DNA from: Pseudomonas sp. JM0905a
GTDB lineage: Bacteria > Pseudomonadota > Gammaproteobacteria > Pseudomonadales > Pseudomonadaceae
Assembly: GCF_014700075.1 (NCBI RefSeq)
Contig: NZ_JACXBU010000004.1
Location: forward strand, 1-64,000
Length of the DNA: 64,000 bases
Direction of reading: 5' to 3'
This document shows positions 3,356 through 48,885 of the stretch, in pieces (position 1 is the first letter of the stretch; every line of letters starts with the position of its first letter). The position numbers were made by a program, and so were the translations under genes. The notes beneath the pieces were generated by a model. The model was not told where the DNA came from. It was given only the letters and a program-made list of their open reading frames with translations, and did not search any database.

Positions 3356-3958
3356 TCAGCCGAACATGCCCACATGGCGCGGGTGGCTAGCCACTCGGTC
3401 CAGCCAAGCGAGGATCGCCGGGTAGCCTGAGAGGTCGAAGCCGCCTTCGTGGGCAACATGGGTGTAGGCGTAGAGGGCGATATCAGCGATGGAGTACTGG
3501 TCGCCCACCAGGTAGGGCGTGCGCTGCAGCTGCTTCTCCATCACCTTCAGTGCCTTGTTCCCACGCACCTGGCAGACCTTGTACTCCTCCAGGCGATCTT
3601 CCGGCATGCCCTGGTACAGCTGAATGAATCGCGCTACTGCGACATAGGGCTCGTGGCTGTACTGCTCGAAGAACTGCCACTGCAGTACCTGGGTACGCAG
3701 GCGCGGCTCGGCGGGCAGCAGGTCGGTGCCTTCGGCGAGGAAATTCAGGATGGCGTTGGACTCCCACAGGGTCGTGCCATCTTCCAATTCCAGCACCGGG
3801 ATCTTGCCGTTGGGGTTCTTCTCCAGGAATTCGGCGCTCTGGGTCTCACCCTTGAGAATGTCCACCGGAATCCACTGGTACGGCTGACCAAGCAGGTTGA
3901 GGATCAGCTTGACCTTGTAGCAGTTGCCGGATTTGTAGTCGCCATAAACCTTGTACAT
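3356..3958 (-). CDS. glutathione S-transferase family protein
   Basis: This 200-residue protein has the two-domain GST layout. An N-terminal thioredoxin fold starts MYKVYGDYKSGNCYKVKL, in which S10 is the likely catalytic serine. The cis-proline segment is NGKIPVLEL and the glutathione gamma-glutamyl contact is WESNAIL. An all-helical C-terminal domain ends with the N-capping motif SIADIALYAYTH. The length is typical. GGGAGG precedes the ATG. It is 20 nt downstream of the aminotransferase gene on the same strand, so the two may be co-transcribed. The substrate is unknown. Confidence 0.92.
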   Translation of the reverse strand: MYKVYGDYKSGNCYKVKLILNLLGQPYQWIPVDILKGETQSAEFLEKNPNGKIPVLELEDGTTLWESNAILNFLAEGTDLLPAEPRLRTQVLQWQFFEQYSHEPYVAVARFIQLYQGMPEDRLEEYKVCQVRGNKALKVMEKQLQRTPYLVGDQYSIADIALYAYTHVAHEGGFDLSGYPAILAWLDRVASHPRHVGMFG

Positions 3959-16138: not shown

Positions 16139-17926
16139 ATGACAAGAACCGTACGCATCGGCTGCGCCTCCGCCTTCTGGGGCGACACCTCCACCGCCGC
16201 CGCCCAACTGGTAAATGGCGCCACGCTGGATTACCTCGTCTTCGATTATCTGGCCGAGATCACCATGTCGATCATGGCCGGCGCCCGCCTGAAAGACCCG
16301 AATGCCGGCTTCGCCACCGATTTCGTCGAAGTCCTGGCGCCCCTGCTGCCGACCATCGCGCAGCAGAAGATCCGCGTGATCAGCAATGCCGGCGGGGTCA
16401 ATCCGGGTGCCTGCGCCAGCGCCCTGGCCGCCGCCTGCGAGAAGGCCGGCGTGTCACTGAAGATCGCCGTGCTGCACGGCGACAACCTGCAACCCCGAAT
16501 GGGCGAACTGGCCAAGTCCGGCATCCGCGAAATGTTCAGCGACGCCCCGCTGCCGCCCATGTGCGTCTCGATCAACGCCTACCTGGGCGCGCCGGGCATA
16601 GTGGCCGCGCTGGAACAGGGCGCGGACATCGTCATCACCGGCCGGGTCGTGGACAGCGCGGTGGTCAGCGCCGCCCTGGTCCACGAGTTCGGCTGGTCCT
16701 GGAGCGACTACGACAAGCTGGCCCAGGCCGCCCTCGCCGGCCACCTGATCGAATGTGGCGCCCAGTGCACCGGCGGCAACTTCACCGACTGGGAATCGGT
16801 ACCCGACTACGAACATATCGGCTTCCCCATCATCGAAGTGGAAGCCGACGGCAGTTTCTGCGTGACCAAGCCGGATAGTTCCGGCGGCCTGGTTACGCCT
16901 TTATCGGTCGGCGAGCAGATGCTCTACGAGATCGGCGACCCGCGCGCCTATCTGCTCCCCGACGTGGTCTGCGACTTCACCCGGGTCAACCTGGAACAGG
17001 CCGGGACCAACCGGGTGCGCGTGCTTGGCGCCCGCGGCCTGCCGCCGACGCCGCAATACAAGGTCAGCGCCACCTACCCCGACGGTTTCCGCTGCACCGC
17101 CAGCTGCCTGCTGGCCGGCATCGACGCGGTGAAGAAGGCCGAGCGGGTGAGCCGCGCCATCATCGCCAAGACTGAAGAACTCTTCGCCGAACGCGGCTGG
17201 GGCCGCTATCGCGAGGTGAACGTCGAACTGCTGGGCAGCGAAGCGACCTACGGCCCCCACGGCCAGCGCCAGGACAGCCGCGAGGTGGTCATCAAGATCG
17301 CCGTCAGCCATAGCCGCAAAGACGCCCTGGTGCTGTTCTCCCGCGAGATCGCCCAGGCCGCCACCGGCATGGCGCCAGGCCTGACCGGCATCGTCGGCGG
17401 CCGCCCCACGGTCTACCCGGTGATCCGGCTGTTTTCCTTCCTGGTGGACAAATCCGCCTGCCACCTCGAAGTGGAAATGGATGGCCAGCGCAGCCCCTGC
17501 GACCTGCCGCAATTGCACGGCTTCGACGTCACAGCCCTGGCCGACGACCTGGCGCCTCCAGCCGCCGAAGGCCAGGCCAGCGCCAGCGTCCCCCTGGTGA
17601 AACTGGCGGTTGCGCGCTCCGGCGACAAAGGCAACCACAGCAATATCGGCGTTATGGCGCGCAAGCCGGAGTACCTGCCCTGGATTGCCGAAGCCCTGAC
17701 CCCGGAAGCCGTGGTCGACTGGATGGGCCACGTACTCGACCCGCAGATCGGCCGCGTGGCGCGCTGGTACTTGCCGGGCAGCCACAGCCTGAACTTCCTG
17801 CTGGAGAACGCCCTGGGCGGCGGCGGCGTGGCCAGCCTGCGCATCGACCCGCAAGGCAAGGCCTTCGCCCAGCAGCTCCTGGAATTCCCGGTGCCGGTGC
17901 CCCAGGCCCTGGCCGACAGCCTCTGA
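16139..17926 (+). CDS. atuA: acyclic terpene utilisation protein AtuA (DUF1446)
   Basis: This 595-residue cytoplasmic protein starts [17 protein letters not shown]. It has a large DUF1446 domain (about residues 6-450) with [20 protein letters not shown] and GGNFTDWE, and a small C-terminal domain (about 490-590) with [15 protein letters not shown]. The family is needed for growth on citronellol in Pseudomonas, but its reaction is not established. I chose the ATG at 16139; the GTG 18 nt earlier has no better binding site. It is the first gene of the operon, 11 nt before atuB. Confidence 0.93.
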
Positions 17927-17937
17927 GGACGCAACCC

Positions 17938-18813
17938 ATGGCATACGATTCGGTATTCAAGCCCGGCCTGTTCAGCGGCCAGACCATCATGGTCACCGGT
18001 GGCGGCAGCGGCATCGGCCGTTGCACCGCCCATGAGCTGGCGGCCCTGGGCGCCCACGTGGTGCTGGTCGGCCGCAAGGCGGAAAAACTGGAGAAGACTG
18101 CTGGCGAGATCAGCGAGGACGGCGGCAGCGCCAGCTGGCAGGCGTGCGACATCCGCGACGAAGAAGCGGTGAAAGCCATGGTCGCCATCGTGCTGACCGA
18201 GCGAGGACCGATCCATCACCTGGTCAACAACGCCGGCGGCCAGTACCCCGCGCCGCTGGCCTCGATCAGCCAGAAAGGCTTCGAGACCGTGGTACGCACC
18301 AACCTGGTGGGCGGCTTCCTGGTCGCCCGCGAAGTGTTCAACCAGTCGATGAGCAAGACCGGCGGCAGCATCGTCAATATGCTCGCTGACATGTGGAGCG
18401 GCATGCCCGGCATGGGCCACTCCGGCGCCGCCCGCGCCGGCATGGAGAACTTCACCAAGACCGCCGCCATCGAGTGGGGCTACGCCGGGGTGCGGGTCAA
18501 CGCCGTGGCACCGGGCTGGATCGCCTCCAGCGGCATGGACACCTACGAAGGCGCCTTCCGCGCCATCATCCCCACACTGCGCGAGCACGTACCACTCAAG
18601 CGCATCGGCAGCGAATCCGAAGTGGCCGCCGCCATCGTCTTCCTGCTCTCCCCCGGCGCCGCCTTCATCAGCGGCAACACCATCCGCATCGACGGCGCCG
18701 CCAGCCAGGGCAGCCGCGCCTTCCCCCTGGCCAAGGCCAAGCCCGGTCAGAGCAAGGCCTACAACGGGTTCCACCGGGCTTTCCTACCCGACGTGCTGAA
18801 GGATCAAGAGTGA
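17938..18813 (+). CDS. atuB: SDR-family dehydrogenase AtuB
   Basis: This 291-residue classical SDR has TGGGSGIG (residues 20-27), GRKAEK for adenine ribose contact, NNAGGQYPAP, and an active-site region whose usual Tyr-x-x-x-Lys appears as SGAARAGMENF. There the expected tyrosine is replaced by alanine, a feature shared with 2,4-dienoyl-CoA reductase-type SDRs. It is thought to oxidise a terpenol/terpenal intermediate or to act on a CoA ester; the exact step is unproven. The stop overlaps the atuC start (TGATG), so translation is coupled. Confidence 0.9.
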   Translation: MAYDSVFKPGLFSGQTIMVTGGGSGIGRCTAHELAALGAHVVLVGRKAEKLEKTAGEISEDGGSASWQACDIRDEEAVKAMVAIVLTERGPIHHLVNNAGGQYPAPLASISQKGFETVVRTNLVGGFLVAREVFNQSMSKTGGSIVNMLADMWSGMPGMGHSGAARAGMENFTKTAAIEWGYAGVRVNAVAPGWIASSGMDTYEGAFRAIIPTLREHVPLKRIGSESEVAAAIVFLLSPGAAFISGNTIRIDGAASQGSRAFPLAKAKPGQSKAYNGFHRAFLPDVLKDQE

Positions 18814-28159: not shown

Positions 28160-28828
28160 TCAACGCTCGCCTTCCAACTCACGGAGTTCCGCCGCGATAT
28201 CTCGCTGCGGATAGCGGGCCTGCAGTTCGTCCAGCAGCTTGTGCGCTTCTTCGCGCTTGCCGGCCTTATCCAGTTCCAGCACACGGCGCAGCTCGGCGTC
28301 GATCTCGGCAGGTTGTGCCGCCGTGGCCTTGGCCATCTCCGTCTTGGGTGCGGCCTCCAGACTCATAGGCTCCGCCTGGCGTGCCTCTTCACTGACGCTG
28401 TCGGCCATGGCCGATGCCTTCTTCTCGGCCTGGGCCGGCGGGCTGGCGAGCGTGGCCGGTGCGGCCCTGGACATGGGCGCGGCGGCCGGTGCCGGCGCGG
28501 AATACTGCGCGGGGCTGGCGGGCGGTGCGTCGAAGCGCTGCCTGGCCTCTTCCTGGGTACGCATCGTCAGGCTCAGGCCGATGCCCAGGGTGGCGAAGCC
28601 GGCCACGGCAACCGCCCAGCGCTGCCGGCCGCCGGCACCGAACAGCCAGGCGTGCAGGCGCTCACCGAGCGACGGGCGAGGCTCAGGCCGGTTCTGGGCG
28701 GCCTGGGCAGCAGCCGCGGCGAGGATGCGCTGGTCCAGCGACGCCGAAGGCTCGTCGTGGCTGTGGCGACGATAGTGTTCGAGCAGTTCCCGTTCCATGG
28801 CGTCCGGCTTGTGCGGGTCTTGGTTCAT
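28160..28828 (-). CDS. sbrR: anti-sigma factor, SbrR-like
   Basis: This 222-residue protein has a cytoplasmic N-terminal part (residues 1-65, with LLEHYRRHSHDEPSASLDQRILAA) that probably holds the sigma factor, and a single membrane helix (about residues 70-89). An Ala/Pro-rich periplasmic segment follows and ends in a helix rich in charged residues (EIDAELRRVLELDKAGKREE). It overlaps the sigma gene by ATGA, the usual coupling for sigma/anti-sigma pairs. In P. aeruginosa SbrR restrains SbrI, affecting swarming and biofilm formation. The name is by locus match from memory. Confidence 0.75.
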   Translation of the reverse strand: MNQDPHKPDAMERELLEHYRRHSHDEPSASLDQRILAAAAAQAAQNRPEPRPSLGERLHAWLFGAGGRQRWAVAVAGFATLGIGLSLTMRTQEEARQRFDAPPASPAQYSAPAPAAAPMSRAAPATLASPPAQAEKKASAMADSVSEEARQAEPMSLEAAPKTEMAKATAAQPAEIDAELRRVLELDKAGKREEAHKLLDELQARYPQRDIAAELRELEGER

Positions 28829-29415
28829 GCGGATACCTCCTCGGCCGCAGCCGGGTCGGCCAGCAGCCGACGCAACTTCTGCAACGCATAGCGCAGGCGG
28901 CTTTTCACCGTCTCTGCGGGGGTGCGGGTAAGTTCGGCGATCTCGGTCAGTTCCAGGTCGCCGTGGGCTCTCAGCAGGAACACTTCGCGCTGCTCGCCCG
29001 GCAGTTCGTCCAGCGCGGCGCGCAGGCGCTGCTGATCCTGACTGAGGGAAAGCTCCCGCTCGGGGTCCTGGCTCTCCCCCGACAGCGCTTCGCCGTGCAG
29101 CGTCTCATCGAAGGCTTCTTCACGGCCCTGCAGACGGCCGTGCTTGCGCCAATGGTCGATCAGGCGATTGCGGGCGATCTGGTAGAGCCAGGTTTTGAAG
29201 CTGGCCTGTCCGAGTGGCGACGACTCGCTGCGGATCAGGTTCAGCCAGGTCTCCTGGAAGATTTCCTCAGCCAGCACACCGTCGCCGCACAGGCCGCAGA
29301 GAAAACGGTAGAGGCCGAGACGATGGCGCGCGTAGAGCACGCCAAAGGCCTCGGCATCGCCATTCCGGTAACGCCGCAGCAAAGCGGCGTCGTCGTCCGT
29401 GAGAGTCGCGTTCAC
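28825..29415 (-). CDS. sbrI: ECF-family RNA polymerase sigma factor, SbrI-like
   Basis: This 196-residue ECF sigma factor has region 2 at residues 10-80 (LYARHRLGLYRFLCGLCGD, FQETWLNLIRS, FKTWLYQIARNRLIDHWRKHG) and region 4 at about 130-190 (LDELPGEQREVFLLRAHGDL, ELTRTPAETVKSRLRYALQ). Translation starts at GTG 29415 behind GGAAGGAA; the nearby ATG at 29420 runs straight into TGA. It follows the vWA lipoprotein gene by 1 nt and overlaps the anti-sigma gene by 4 nt, so all three are coupled. Confidence 0.85.
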   Translation of the reverse strand: MNATLTDDDAALLRRYRNGDAEAFGVLYARHRLGLYRFLCGLCGDGVLAEEIFQETWLNLIRSESSPLGQASFKTWLYQIARNRLIDHWRKHGRLQGREEAFDETLHGEALSGESQDPERELSLSQDQQRLRAALDELPGEQREVFLLRAHGDLELTEIAELTRTPAETVKSRLRYALQKLRRLLADPAAAEEVSA

Positions 29416-29416
29416 G

Positions 29417-31141
29417 TCATTCCTTCCGCGCGTGGGATGGGGCAGGAGTTTGCAAGCTTTGCGCGAGTTCCACCAGTTGAACGAACTCGCCACGCAGGCC
29501 GAAGCGATCATCGCCACGGGCCCCACGAGCCAGCCCGGCGCTGTCGGCCAGGCCGAACTCTCCCGTGTACTGGCCGCCCTTGAGTTGCTGGGCGAAGGCC
29601 GCAACCGCGGCGGCGAAACGCAGGTCCTCACTGGCCTGATCCAGCGGGAGGGCCTTGCCGGCTGCGATGGGGCGTTCCAGCAAGCGGCTCTGCTCCGACC
29701 CCGGCACCTTGTAGCGCACCCGCAGCCAGGCCAGTTCGCCAGCCTTGCCCTCGGCCTTCACGGCGCTCTGGTAGCGCAGCGGTTCCAGCCAGCCCTTGGC
29801 ACCGGTGGGCACGATCTCATACAGCGCGGTGATGGTATGCCCGGCCCCGATCTCGCCGGCATCCACCTTGTCATTGCTGAAGTCCTCCCGCTTGAGGGCA
29901 CGATTCTCATAGCCCAGCAGGCGGTACTCACTCACTTCGGCGGGGTTGAACTCCAGCTGCAGTTTCACGTCCCGCGCCACCACCGAGAGGGTGGAGCCGA
30001 GCTGGTCCACCAGCACCTTGCGTGCTTCGCGCAGGTTGTCGATGTAGGCGTAGTTGCCATCGCCGGCATCGGCCAGTTGCTCCATCAACTGCTCGTTGTA
30101 GTTGTCCACGCCGAAGCCCAGGGTGGTCAGCGAAACCCCGCCCTTGCGCTTCTGCGCGGCCAGTTGCTTGAGGCTGTCGAAATCGCTGATGCCGACGTTG
30201 AAGTCGCCGTCGGTGGCCAGGAGGATACGGTTGATGCCTTCCGGGATCAGGCCCTTCTGCGCTTCGGCATAGGCCAGCTGGATGCCCGACTCGCCCGCCG
30301 TGGAGCCGCCGGCGCTGAGCTGTTCGATGGCGGCGCGGATCTTTGCCTTCTCGCTGCCGGGCGTGGAGCCCAGCACCACCCTCGCCTCCCCGGCATAGGT
30401 GACCAGGGAGACCCGGTCCTGCGGGCGCAACTGGTCCACCAGCAGCTTGAGGGTGCCCTGCACCATGGGCAGGCCTTCGCGGCGGTCCATGGAGCCCGAG
30501 ACGTCCACCAGGAATACCAGGTTGGCCGGGGGCAGCTGTTCGACGCTGCTGTCGGAGGCCTTGATCGCCACGCGCAACAGGCGGGTTTGCGGATTCCAGG
30601 GGGTCTGCGCCTGCTCGATACCGATGCCGAAGGGCACGTCGCTTTCCGGTAGCGGGTAGCGGTAAGGGAAGTAGTTGACCATCTCTTCCAACCGCACGGC
30701 ATCGGCCGGCGGCAGTTGTCCGCCGTTCAAGAAGCGCCGCACATTAGCGTAGCTGCCGGTGTCGACATCGATGCTGAAGGTGGAAACCGGATCGCTGGCA
30801 ACCGCGTGGACCGGGTTGTCGGGAAGGTGCTGGTACTGCTCGCGGGGCACATCGCGATAGCCCGGCTGCAGTGCATCCGCCATGGGGGCAGGCGCGATCA
30901 TGGGCATCTGCCGTACCTCGGCCGCGTAATCGGCGCGCTTGGCCATGGCTGCCGGCACGCTGGCCTTGCTCTCCTCGCGCAATTCCGGCTCCACCTGGAT
31001 CGATGCGGGCGGCGGCGCCTCGGCCTTGCCGCTGACGGGGGCGGACGCATCCTGCGCACTGCAGGCGGCCAGGGCCAGCAGCAGGCCGGCGGTGAAGCCG
31101 GCGGCCAGGGGTTGGTGCGAAAGGAAACTGTGGCTGGAGAT
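29417..31141 (-). CDS. von Willebrand factor type A lipoprotein (YfbK-like), apparent ATC start
   Basis: The natural N terminus is a lipoprotein signal ending LLLALAAC (C27 of a 574-residue product), but no ATG, GTG or TTG is in frame before it. The only well-placed initiation site is ATC at 31141, six bases after AGGAGG. The first standard start, GTG 30994, lies past the signal and has no binding site. The body has an N-terminal YfbK-specific region, a vWA domain from about residue 206 with MIDAS D213-x-S215-x-S217 (VDVSGSM) and ATDGDF, and a C-terminal beta-rich YfbK domain. It leads the ECF sigma operon. Confidence 0.8.
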   Translation of the reverse strand: MSSHSFLSHQPLAAGFTAGLLLALAACSAQDASAPVSGKAEAPPPASIQVEPELREESKASVPAAMAKRADYAAEVRQMPMIAPAPMADALQPGYRDVPREQYQHLPDNPVHAVASDPVSTFSIDVDTGSYANVRRFLNGGQLPPADAVRLEEMVNYFPYRYPLPESDVPFGIGIEQAQTPWNPQTRLLRVAIKASDSSVEQLPPANLVFLVDVSGSMDRREGLPMVQGTLKLLVDQLRPQDRVSLVTYAGEARVVLGSTPGSEKAKIRAAIEQLSAGGSTAGESGIQLAYAEAQKGLIPEGINRILLATDGDFNVGISDFDSLKQLAAQKRKGGVSLTTLGFGVDNYNEQLMEQLADAGDGNYAYIDNLREARKVLVDQLGSTLSVVARDVKLQLEFNPAEVSEYRLLGYENRALKREDFSNDKVDAGEIGAGHTITALYEIVPTGAKGWLEPLRYQSAVKAEGKAGELAWLRVRYKVPGSEQSRLLERPIAAGKALPLDQASEDLRFAAAVAAFAQQLKGGQYTGEFGLADSAGLARGARGDDRFGLRGEFVQLVELAQSLQTPAPSHARKE

Positions 31142-31179
31142 GGGGCGCCTCCTGGGAGCGAATGAGCCATTCGCACCAG

Positions 31180-31209
31180 TAGACGGAGGCGCTGCGCCGA
31201 ACGGGTCAA
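31180..31209 (-). promoter_or_regulatory. candidate ECF-type promoter upstream of vWA-sbrI-sbrR
   Basis: Read on the minus strand, TTGACCC (31209-31203) and CGTCTA (31185-31180) are 17 bp apart, as in ECF promoters. The expected start of transcription near 31173 leaves a leader of about 30 nt before the AGGAGG-ATC initiation site. The leader also contains the perfect hairpin GCGAATG-GCT-CATTCGC. Recognition by SbrI is inferred. Confidence 0.45.
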
Positions 31210-31247: not shown

Positions 31248-31274
31248 CTTGGCGAATGAGTTCGCCCCTACAGG
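31248..31274. repeat. REP-like element overlapping the end of the MocR gene
   Basis: GGCGAATGAGTTCGCC and the flanking CCCCTACAGG belong to the same family as the arms at 25489-25586. The TAG stop of the MocR gene (31268-31270) lies within it. Confidence 0.75.
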
Positions 31275-32701
31275 CCGGCCTCCTGGCAGAGCTGCTTGGC
31301 CAGCATGCCGAGGGTCATGATGGCCCGCTCGGCCTCACGGTTCCATGGGATGCCGCAGTTCAGCCGCACGCAGTGGTTGAACTGCTCGGTATTACTGAAG
31401 ATCAGCCCCGGCGCGATGCTGATGCCCTGCTGCAGGGCGCGCACGTGCAGGTCCTTGGTGTTCACCTTGGCCGGCAGGCTGATCCAGAGGATGAAGCCGC
31501 CATTGGGCCGGGTAATCTGGGTGCCTTCGGGGAAGTACTGCTGCACGCCCAGTTGGAACGCGGTGAGGTTCTTCCGGTACTCCTGGCGGATGTAGCGCAG
31601 GTGCCGGTCGTAACCGCCGTTCTCCAGGTACGCGGCCACCCCCATTTGGGTGACGCTGCACGCCGAGTGGGTGCTGAAGGTCTGCAGGCGCTGGATTTCC
31701 GCCTGGTACTTGCCGGCGATCATCCAGCCGATGCGCACGCCAGGCGACAGGGTCTTGGAGAAACTGGAACAGTAGATCACCCGGTCATCGAGGTCGTAGG
31801 CCTTGATCGCCTTGGACGGCCCCTGGTCGAACATCAGCTCGCCGTAGATATCGTCCTCGATGATCTGGATGTCGAAGTCCGAAGACAGGCACAACAGCTG
31901 CTTCTGGCGCTCCTCGGGGATGGTGCCACCCAGCGGATTGCTCAGCCGCGCGGTCAATACCAGCGCCTTGATCGGCCACTGGTTGGCAGCCAGCTGCAGG
32001 GCCTCCAGGCTGATGCCGGTGGTGGGGTCGCTGGGAATCTCGATCACCTTCAGGCCGAGCAGGTCGGCCAGTTGCAGCAGGCCGTAATAGGTCGGCGACT
32101 CGGTGGCGATCAGGTCACCGGGACGGGTCAGCACCCGCAGGCTCATCTGCAGGGCATCCACGCAGCCGTGGGTGATGACCACTTCGCTCGGGTCCACCAC
32201 CACGCCGGCATCGCGCATGCGGATGGCAACCTGGCGCCGCAGCGGCTCGAAGCCAGGGCTGAACATGTAGCTGAAGGCACGCGGACTATGGAAACGGGTG
32301 ACCTTGGCCAGTTGCTGGTGCAGGGTGCGCACCGGCAGGTAGTCGACATGGGGCACAGCCGCGCCCAGCGGGAACACACCTTCGCGGCGGGATTCGGCCA
32401 GTACCTGCTGGATGATGCTGGCGCGGGTCACGAGGCCAGGGCGCTCGACGCGGGCGATATCCGGGGTGGATGCGGTCAGGGCCGGCGTCTGGTGCACGTA
32501 GAAGCCGGACTGCGGACGGGCACGGATCAGCCCCTGGTCTTCCAGGCTGGCATAGGCCTGCAGCACGGTGGCGTGGCTGACACTGAGCTGGGAACTGAGC
32601 TTGCGCACCGAGGGCACACGCTCGCCGGGCTGGTAAACGCCACGGCGGATGTCATCGGCCAGTTGCTGGGCGATGCGCTGGTAGAGCAACAGATTGGTCA
32701 T
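31268..32701 (-). CDS. MocR-type regulator (GntR winged helix fused to aminotransferase-like domain)
   Basis: This 477-residue protein has a GntR DNA-binding domain at residues 1-75 (LLYQRIAQQLADDIRRGVY, VSHATVLQAYASLEDQGLI) fused to a fold-type I aminotransferase domain. That domain has PSDPTTGISLEALQ, DDIYGELMFD and the PLP lysine in SSFSKTLSPGVRIGW. MocR proteins use PLP as a sensor rather than for catalysis. I start at ATG 32701 (MTNLLLYQ), where the GntR domain begins; a longer frame to 32758 adds 19 residues without support. It occupies the PA2897-like position beside sbrIR. Confidence 0.9.
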   Translation of the reverse strand: MTNLLLYQRIAQQLADDIRRGVYQPGERVPSVRKLSSQLSVSHATVLQAYASLEDQGLIRARPQSGFYVHQTPALTASTPDIARVERPGLVTRASIIQQVLAESRREGVFPLGAAVPHVDYLPVRTLHQQLAKVTRFHSPRAFSYMFSPGFEPLRRQVAIRMRDAGVVVDPSEVVITHGCVDALQMSLRVLTRPGDLIATESPTYYGLLQLADLLGLKVIEIPSDPTTGISLEALQLAANQWPIKALVLTARLSNPLGGTIPEERQKQLLCLSSDFDIQIIEDDIYGELMFDQGPSKAIKAYDLDDRVIYCSSFSKTLSPGVRIGWMIAGKYQAEIQRLQTFSTHSACSVTQMGVAAYLENGGYDRHLRYIRQEYRKNLTAFQLGVQQYFPEGTQITRPNGGFILWISLPAKVNTKDLHVRALQQGISIAPGLIFSNTEQFNHCVRLNCGIPWNREAERAIMTLGMLAKQLCQEAGL

Positions 32702-32808
32702 GTAGGCGGCACCTGTATCACTGGACCGAAACACTATCCGAACACCCTGCAACTGCACCGGTACAGATCTGGAAATTGTGGGCGTTACAGTGAATTTGTC
32801 CAGGCACT

Positions 32809-48069: not shown

Positions 48070-48885
48070 TCAGATGTCCAGTAGATCGCGGGCGATGGCC
48101 TGAAGTTTACGGGTCAGCGGCCCGACCGGCCAGTGATGGCCTGTTACAGAACGCACCGGCCAGACGCCGAAGAGGCTGTTGCAGAGGAACACCTCGTCGG
48201 CCTTGAGGAAGTCCTCGAAGGGGATGTCGCGCACGTCGACCTTCAGGCCTTCGGCCCTGGCGCTGTCGAGCAGGGCTGCTCGCATCACACCGGCCACGCC
48301 GCAGCGCGAAAGGTCCGCGGTGATCAGCGCGCATTCATGCACGATGAACAGGTTGCTGAACACGCCTTCGATTACGCGACCGGATAGGTCACGCATCAGT
48401 CCCTCGGCAAACTCGCTGCCCTGCCACTCGCTCCGGGCCAGTACCTGCTCCAGTCGATTCAGGTGCTTGAGACCGGCAAGCAGGGGCTGTTCGGCAAGGC
48501 GAGTCAAGCAGGGATAGAGCTGGACGCCCTCTTCCCCATTAACTTCCGGATAGGCCGGGAACGGACTGCTCTGCAGAATGCGTCGAGGCAACGCGACAGG
48601 CGGTGGCGCGTAGCCACGCAAGCCTTCGCCGCGGGTGATCATCAACTTGGTGACGCCCTCACCCAGCCCAGCCGAAAAGGCCAGCAGCTCGGTGCGCATC
48701 AGTTGGAGATCCAGTGGAATACCGAGGCGCCGACAACCTTCGGCCAGACGCGCCATGTGGTACTCGAGAAGTGGGGGCCTTCCGGCACGCACGGCGATGG
48801 TCTCGAAAAGCCCATCGCCGTAGGCCAGGCCGCGATCCTTGATGGAAAGCGACTCAGCCGGGTGACCGTCGACCCAGCTCGGCAT
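48070..48885 (-). CDS. pabC: aminodeoxychorismate lyase
   Basis: This 271-residue fold-type IV PLP enzyme makes 4-aminobenzoate for folate. It has RGLAYGDGLFETI at residues 18-30, the PLP lysine in AGLKHLNRLEQVLAR, and EGVFSNLFIV for phosphate binding. Its ATG shares one base with the fabF stop (TGATG). With folE at the start of the window, it is the second folate gene here, though in a separate locus. Confidence 0.94.
   Translation of the reverse strand: MPSWVDGHPAESLSIKDRGLAYGDGLFETIAVRAGRPPLLEYHMARLAEGCRRLGIPLDLQLMRTELLAFSAGLGEGVTKLMITRGEGLRGYAPPPVALPRRILQSSPFPAYPEVNGEEGVQLYPCLTRLAEQPLLAGLKHLNRLEQVLARSEWQGSEFAEGLMRDLSGRVIEGVFSNLFIVHECALITADLSRCGVAGVMRAALLDSARAEGLKVDVRDIPFEDFLKADEVFLCNSLFGVWPVRSVTGHHWPVGPLTRKLQAIARDLLDI

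What the first reader, a model, noticed from the sequence alone, without database searches (positions are those of the whole stretch)
30992..31153. vWA lipoprotein appears to start with ATC behind a consensus Shine-Dalgarno
The lipobox LAAC and hydrophobic signal are intact, yet no ATG, GTG or TTG precedes them in frame. ATC at 31139-31141 sits six bases after AGGAGG. Non-standard start codons are known in infC and pcnB, where they allow control by initiation factor 3. Such a start at the head of an ECF sigma operon could throttle the whole unit. A point change from ATG is the alternative.
Basis: partly seen in the sequence, partly recalled or inferred. Interest (0 to 1): 0.7.

Follow-up and report, generated by a model that had tools for sequence, protein, structure and literature searches.

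The report
Start codon lost in lipoprotein gene
In this one Pseudomonas-group genome the normal ATG start of a surface lipoprotein gene reads ATC, most likely a private point change that should reduce the protein and not a conserved regulatory start.

Summary
On the minus strand AGGAGG (31153-31148), six bases, then ATC (31141-31139) open a frame with signal and lipobox LAAC; no ATG, GTG or TTG precedes the lipobox in frame. The next standard start, GTG 30994-30992, lies past the lipobox without a Shine-Dalgarno. The regulatory reading is not supported: 89 of 89 distinct readable orthologues start with ATG behind a Shine-Dalgarno, including all 17 congeners at this same codon; one more is interrupted there by an insertion. 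The ATC is private to this assembly and lies among five private substitutions in 40 bp. The gene (changed:silent codons 4:16) and sigma (0:10) still look constrained on this branch, so the change is recent, leaves some expression, or is an error. Sigma's GTG sits one base after the lipoprotein stop, so sigma may fall too. Best reading: a natural, recent start-loss allele, probably a strong knock-down. No reads or second assembly of the species were available, so a base-calling error stays open. The promoter's -35-like block is TGACCC here and in one relative, TAACCC in the other 88 of 90 loci.

The parts
31203..31208 (-). -35-like element TGACCC of the operon promoter (TAACCC in 88 of 90 loci)
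   Evidence: A to G here and in G003 only; 17-base spacer to CGTC
31181..31185 (-). -10-like element CGTCT of the operon promoter
31158..31174 (-). inverted repeat GCGAATG-GCT-CATTCGC in the leader (7-base arms; base 31158 is a private change)
31148..31153 (-). Shine-Dalgarno AGGAGG
   Evidence: same place in relatives
31139..31141 (-). ATC at the start-codon position (ATG in 17 of 17 congeners; 89 of 89 readable distinct orthologues start with ATG)
31061..31141 (-). N-terminal region with hydrophobic signal and lipobox LAAC (Cys codon 31063-31061)
   Evidence: no signal-peptide program run
29417..31141 (-). vWA-domain lipoprotein of the YfbK type (PF12450, PF00092, PF12034), frame open, start codon lost
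30992..30994 (-). first in-frame standard start (GTG), downstream of the lipobox, no Shine-Dalgarno match
28825..29415 (-). ECF sigma factor (PRK12513 type), GTG start one base after the vWA stop
28160..28828 (-). probable anti-sigma protein by position only, overlapping the sigma stop by 4 bases; no Pfam family above cut-off

Best explanation
A natural point change has turned the ATG start of the first gene of an ECF sigma operon into ATC in this lineage. Shown: the codon, its absence from the orthologues examined, the intact remainder of the gene and the operon layout. Inferred: ribosomes still dock at the strong Shine-Dalgarno, but fMet-tRNA pairs poorly with AUC and IF3 rejects most such complexes, so the lipoprotein is made at a small fraction of the ancestral level; because the sigma gene starts one base after the lipoprotein stop, its translation probably falls too through lost coupling. 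It is a hypomorphic or near-null allele, not an evolved switch.
For: The only start lost among 35 comparable ones in the window. The ATC is one of five private substitutions in 40 bp (31119, 31120, 31139, 31145, 31158), unlike a lone miscall. No compensating start upstream in frame, and the Shine-Dalgarno is predicted more paired than in the 17 congeners (mean unpaired probability 0.02 against 0.04 to 0.46). No second copy in the own genome at E 1e-3. Literature, passages only: an rpoS ATG>ATA change that arose in culture lowered RpoS up to 5-fold, and the paper cites ATA as giving at most 1% of ATG efficiency (PMC12864459); raising IF3 lowered full-length product for the AUU/CAU, AUC/UAU and AUC/AAU pairs in vitro (PMC10158994; its text lists the class that holds AUC/CAU among combinations omitted).
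Against: The gene body is still constrained on this branch: 4 non-synonymous and 16 synonymous private codons against a neutral expectation of about 2.7 to 1; by a simple Poisson model at most about 14 to 19% of the branch was unconstrained. That demands a recent change, residual expression or an error. Clusters of five or more private substitutions also occur elsewhere on this and the sister branches, so the cluster is weak support. Three of the 35 control ORFs carry a private stop in the window. No reads and no second assembly of the species were available. The knock-down is not measured, and no AUC efficiency was seen in a paper.
Confidence: 0.72

Rival explanations
1. Base-calling or assembly error: the strain really has ATG and nothing has changed.
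For: One assembly only, in 43 contigs; a private change in an otherwise constrained gene is what an error would look like; three mechanically chosen control ORFs carry private stops.
Against: None of the 35 comparable ORFs has a length out of frame where both ends align. The change lies among five private substitutions, which a single miscall would not produce. The neighbouring -35 change is shared with another genome.
Confidence: 0.16
2. A working, regulated AUC start: initiation from AUC is weak and IF3-sensitive by design, throttling the ECF sigma operon, as AUU does for infC.
For: Consensus Shine-Dalgarno at normal spacing; the gene and sigma remain constrained; the same genome appears to open infC with ATT behind GGAG by direct reading; one paper lists AUC among rare but known bacterial starts (passage, PMC6397469).
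Against: 89 of 89 orthologues start with ATG, so the trait is not conserved; the change adds a predicted pairing with the Shine-Dalgarno.
Confidence: 0.07
3. Translation begins elsewhere, at GTG 30994 or from a leader not seen, giving a cytoplasmic protein without the lipobox.
For: GTG 30994 is the first standard start in frame and is what a simple ORF caller gives.
Against: No Shine-Dalgarno match in the 20 bases before it; it discards a signal and lipobox seen in the orthologues; the conserved promoter-like block ends about 40 bases before the ATC and no in-frame standard start lies between.
Confidence: 0.05

Closest known systems
Natural or laboratory start-loss alleles, for example rpoS ATG>ATA in E. 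coli O104:H4 (PMC12864459, abstract and passages seen)
   Same: third base of ATG changed in one strain, frame intact, expected knock-down
   Different: here ATC, a lipoprotein gene at the head of an ECF operon, level not measured
PAAR gene copy of Neisseria mucosa strains with ATG to ATC (PMC10210955, one passage seen)
   Same: ATG to ATC; the authors give it as the likely reason that automatic annotation missed the copy
   Different: there caused by a Correia element's inverted repeat; no insertion seen here
infC AUU start (IF3 autoregulation; mechanism recalled, not from a call)
   Same: non-standard start behind a Shine-Dalgarno
   Different: infC's start is a known autoregulatory device; here the non-standard start is private to one genome
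SbrI-SbrR ECF sigma/anti-sigma pair of P. aeruginosa (passages in PMC10418997)
   Same: an ECF sigma with a (here putative) anti-sigma
   Different: orthology not tested; similar neighbourhood only recalled; a vWA lipoprotein leads the operon here

Membership tests
Regulated non-standard starts (infC/pcnB kind) | non-standard start conserved among orthologues | tested here: not met
   ATG in 89 of 89 readable distinct orthologues
Regulated non-standard starts (infC/pcnB kind) | Shine-Dalgarno at normal spacing before the codon | tested here: met
   AGGAGG, 6 bases
Regulated non-standard starts (infC/pcnB kind) | expression responds to IF3 level | not testable with these tools
   needs reporter work
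Start-loss allele of a conserved gene | ATG in relatives, other codon here, frame otherwise intact | tested here: met
Start-loss allele of a conserved gene | base confirmed by independent sequence of the strain or species | not testable with these tools
   no other record of the species was found: one search listed 80 loci, the nearest 97% identical in protein, and says records very near the window may be left out; viral contigs gave no relative
Start-loss allele of a conserved gene | reduced protein | not testable with these tools
   inferred from literature on other codons
YfbK-type vWA lipoprotein | PF12450, PF00092 and PF12034 above cut-off | tested here: met
   131.5, 74.5 and 229.3 bits
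YfbK-type vWA lipoprotein | signal peptide and lipobox | tested here: met
   by eye and pattern, LAAC; no signal-peptide program run
ECF sigma factor (PRK12513) | score over the NCBIfam cut-off | tested here: met
   255.1 bits against 206, run on the longer ORF 28825-29631

The most novel reading that the evidence does not exclude
The AUC is a fixed, working start in this species that sets a very low, IF3-dependent level of the lipoprotein and, by coupling, of its ECF sigma factor: a recent re-tuning of an ECF operon through its start codon, with the leader hairpins sharpened at the same time.
Probability: 0.07. Interest if true: 0.6.

Novelty: new member of a known kind. Interest (0 to 1): 0.22.

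Why it matters
If real, it is a natural start-codon knock-down at the head of a sigma operon and gives a near-matched comparison (closely related leaders, same gene, different start) for how much translation AUC supports and how far loss of an upstream start lowers a coupled sigma factor. It also shows how a gene like this can be called from the next GTG, as the mechanical ORF list does, and so lose its signal peptide on paper.

Tried and rejected
Start upstream in frame: rejected, no ATG, GTG or TTG before the stop. Decaying gene: not supported; changed to silent codons 4:16 in vWA and 0:10 in sigma on this branch. Spare copy: none at E 1e-3 in the own genome. Other sites of the promoter motif in the own genome: TAACCC-N14-18-CGTCT gave 3 matches against 5 for the reversed control; of the 3, one has no ATG or GTG frame over 90 codons starting from 300 bases before to 154 after it, one lies inside an open frame, one is unclear, so I take them as chance. 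The pattern does not cover the window's own TGACCC. Other sequence of the same species: viral contigs gave no relative (3 pattern matches, none confirmed; 0); the one genome-contig scan listed 80 loci and says records very near the window may be left out. A templated (palindrome-mending) origin of the private cluster: suggested by inverted repeats that private changes complete, not tested against chance. Papers: on non-standard starts, searches, of which I saw listings, plus passages of PMC12864459, PMC10158994, PMC5622118, PMC10210955, PMC6397469 and PMC11497404; Hecht 2017 is not held, so its AUC value was not seen. On vWA with ECF, searches (10 of 329 listed; 1 paper, listing only) showed nothing on this operon. 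One search on SbrI: 3 listed, passages of one seen. One search on the genus name: listing only, not used.

Full report
What is there. On the minus strand of the window an ECF sigma operon begins with a vWA-domain lipoprotein gene (29417-31141; PF12450, PF00092, PF12034), followed by an ECF sigma factor (28825-29415; NCBIfam PRK12513 over its cut-off) and a protein that by position is probably its anti-sigma (28160-28828; no Pfam family above cut-off). A MocR-type regulator lies upstream (31268-32758; GntR and aminotransferase domains). The lipoprotein frame has AGGAGG, six bases, then ATC; signal and lipobox follow intact.

Is ATC shared? Not in anything examined. Seventeen other genomes of the genus were held; 17 of 17 carry the gene and have ATG at this codon (in 12 the alignment reaches residue 1, in 5 it begins at residue 3 or 7 and was extended back without gaps). 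The remaining 89 of 89 have an ATG behind a Shine-Dalgarno-like word of at least four bases: 48 at the window's distance of 26 codons before the lipobox cysteine, 41 at 19 to 30 codons. In a pattern search of the 18 genomes of the genus, the four that share the leader type read ATG, ATG, ATG and, in the window, ATC.

Is it an error? It cannot be settled here. Of 57 mechanically chosen ORFs, 22 had no usable start; of the other 35, 34 keep a standard start in the window, and none has a length out of frame where both ends align. The same control also has a result the other way: three of the 35 carry a private in-frame stop in the window; two are short (57 and 78 codons) and the third partly overlaps a neighbouring ORF, so they may not be genes. 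The ATC is one of five private substitutions within 40 bp, tied for the densest such cluster on this branch in 35.7 kb aligned to three relatives; clusters of five or more also occur elsewhere on this and the sister branches, so the cluster is not exceptional by itself.

Is the gene decaying? Using codons where the three relatives agree, the window's branch has 4 amino-acid-changing and 16 silent codons in the lipoprotein gene and 0 and 10 in sigma. The two sister branches have 1 and 18, and 3 and 23, in the lipoprotein gene, so the window is slightly but not clearly looser. A neutral gene of this composition would give about 2.7 to 1. A Poisson estimate, with the constrained rate taken from relatives, allows at most about 14 to 19% of the branch to have been unconstrained. 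So the change is recent, or enough protein is still made to be selected, or it is an error.

What it should do. The leader is short: a conserved block stands before the start, TAACCC or TGACCC, 17 bases, then CGTC followed by T or C. The scan found it in 90 of 90 loci, with the 17-base spacer in 87; in the other 3 it stopped at a nearer CGTCC, and the printed sequences show a further CGTC at 17 bases. The base before the block is T in 87 of 90, and CGTCT rather than CGTCC was matched in 86 of 90. I read it as the ECF promoter of the operon; that is inference from conservation and position. Between it and the lipobox there is no standard in-frame start in the window. Initiation at AUC is expected to be weak: I saw passages stating that ATA gives at most 1% of ATG efficiency and that an rpoS ATG>ATA change lowered the protein up to 5-fold (PMC12864459), and that IF3 disfavours weak codon-anticodon pairs (PMC10158994). 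No value for AUC with the normal initiator was seen. In predicted folds of natural leaders, the window's Shine-Dalgarno is the least accessible of 18 (0.02; next 0.04 and 0.06), so the weight of this is small. The sigma GTG is one base after the lipoprotein stop; a mechanical scan put the sigma start within -8 to +2 bases in 79 of 87 loci with a visible sigma gene, 8 lying further off and 3 of the 90 examined showing none. Loss of lipoprotein translation may therefore lower sigma as well; this is inference.

Other changes at the promoter. The -35-like block reads TGACCC in the window and in G003 and TAACCC in the other 88 of 90 loci. Around 31-33 kb the window shares more derived sites with G003 than with G015 (10 to 3 and 15 to 4 per kb), against the total (199 to 284 over 36 kb), so this base is probably shared by descent. 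Sigma residues around region 4 are the same in the window, G015 and G003 (G007 differs there).

Context on starts. The same genome appears to open infC with ATT behind GGAG, by direct reading of the frame, and pcnB most simply with ATG. So the classical IF3-sensitive infC start seems to exist here, but the lipoprotein's ATC is not conserved.

Verdict. The most likely explanation is a natural private start-loss allele (0.72), then a base-calling error (0.16), a regulated AUC start (0.07) and initiation elsewhere (0.05). Interest is modest: such alleles are known, and this one would be useful mainly as a natural test of AUC initiation and translational coupling.

Noticed in passing
L048:2656-2983 (Pseudomonas mendocina EF27, NZ_VRYE01000135.1): The orthologous gene is interrupted just after its ATG by what looks like an IS200/IS605-type element (transposase-like start MDYRYGSHTVYQIEYHFVWVTKYRYK; family name recalled, not searched) followed by a run of N (gap or mask): a second natural lesion at the head of this gene.
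   Followed up: partly
window 31203-31208 (-): The otherwise conserved -35-like TAACCC is TGACCC here and in G003 only (2 of 90).
   Followed up: partly
window 31113-31178 (-): Private substitutions complete inverted repeats: GCGAATG/CATTCGC (31158), TGGTGCGAA/TTCGCACCA (31119-31120), and GGAG/CTCC with the ATC base itself; possible templated mutation, not tested against chance.
   Followed up: partly
L116 (G000:C41:298771-299274, -): infC of this genome appears to start with ATT behind GGAG.
   Followed up: partly
window 48319-48552 (+), 17651-18412 (-), 3749-3919 (+): Three mechanically chosen ORFs, open in G003 at these codons, carry a private in-frame stop in the window; they may not be real genes.
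   Followed up: no
window 31251-31266 (-): A REP-like inverted repeat (GGCGAA...TTCGCC) between the MocR gene and the lipoprotein gene (family name recalled).
   Followed up: no
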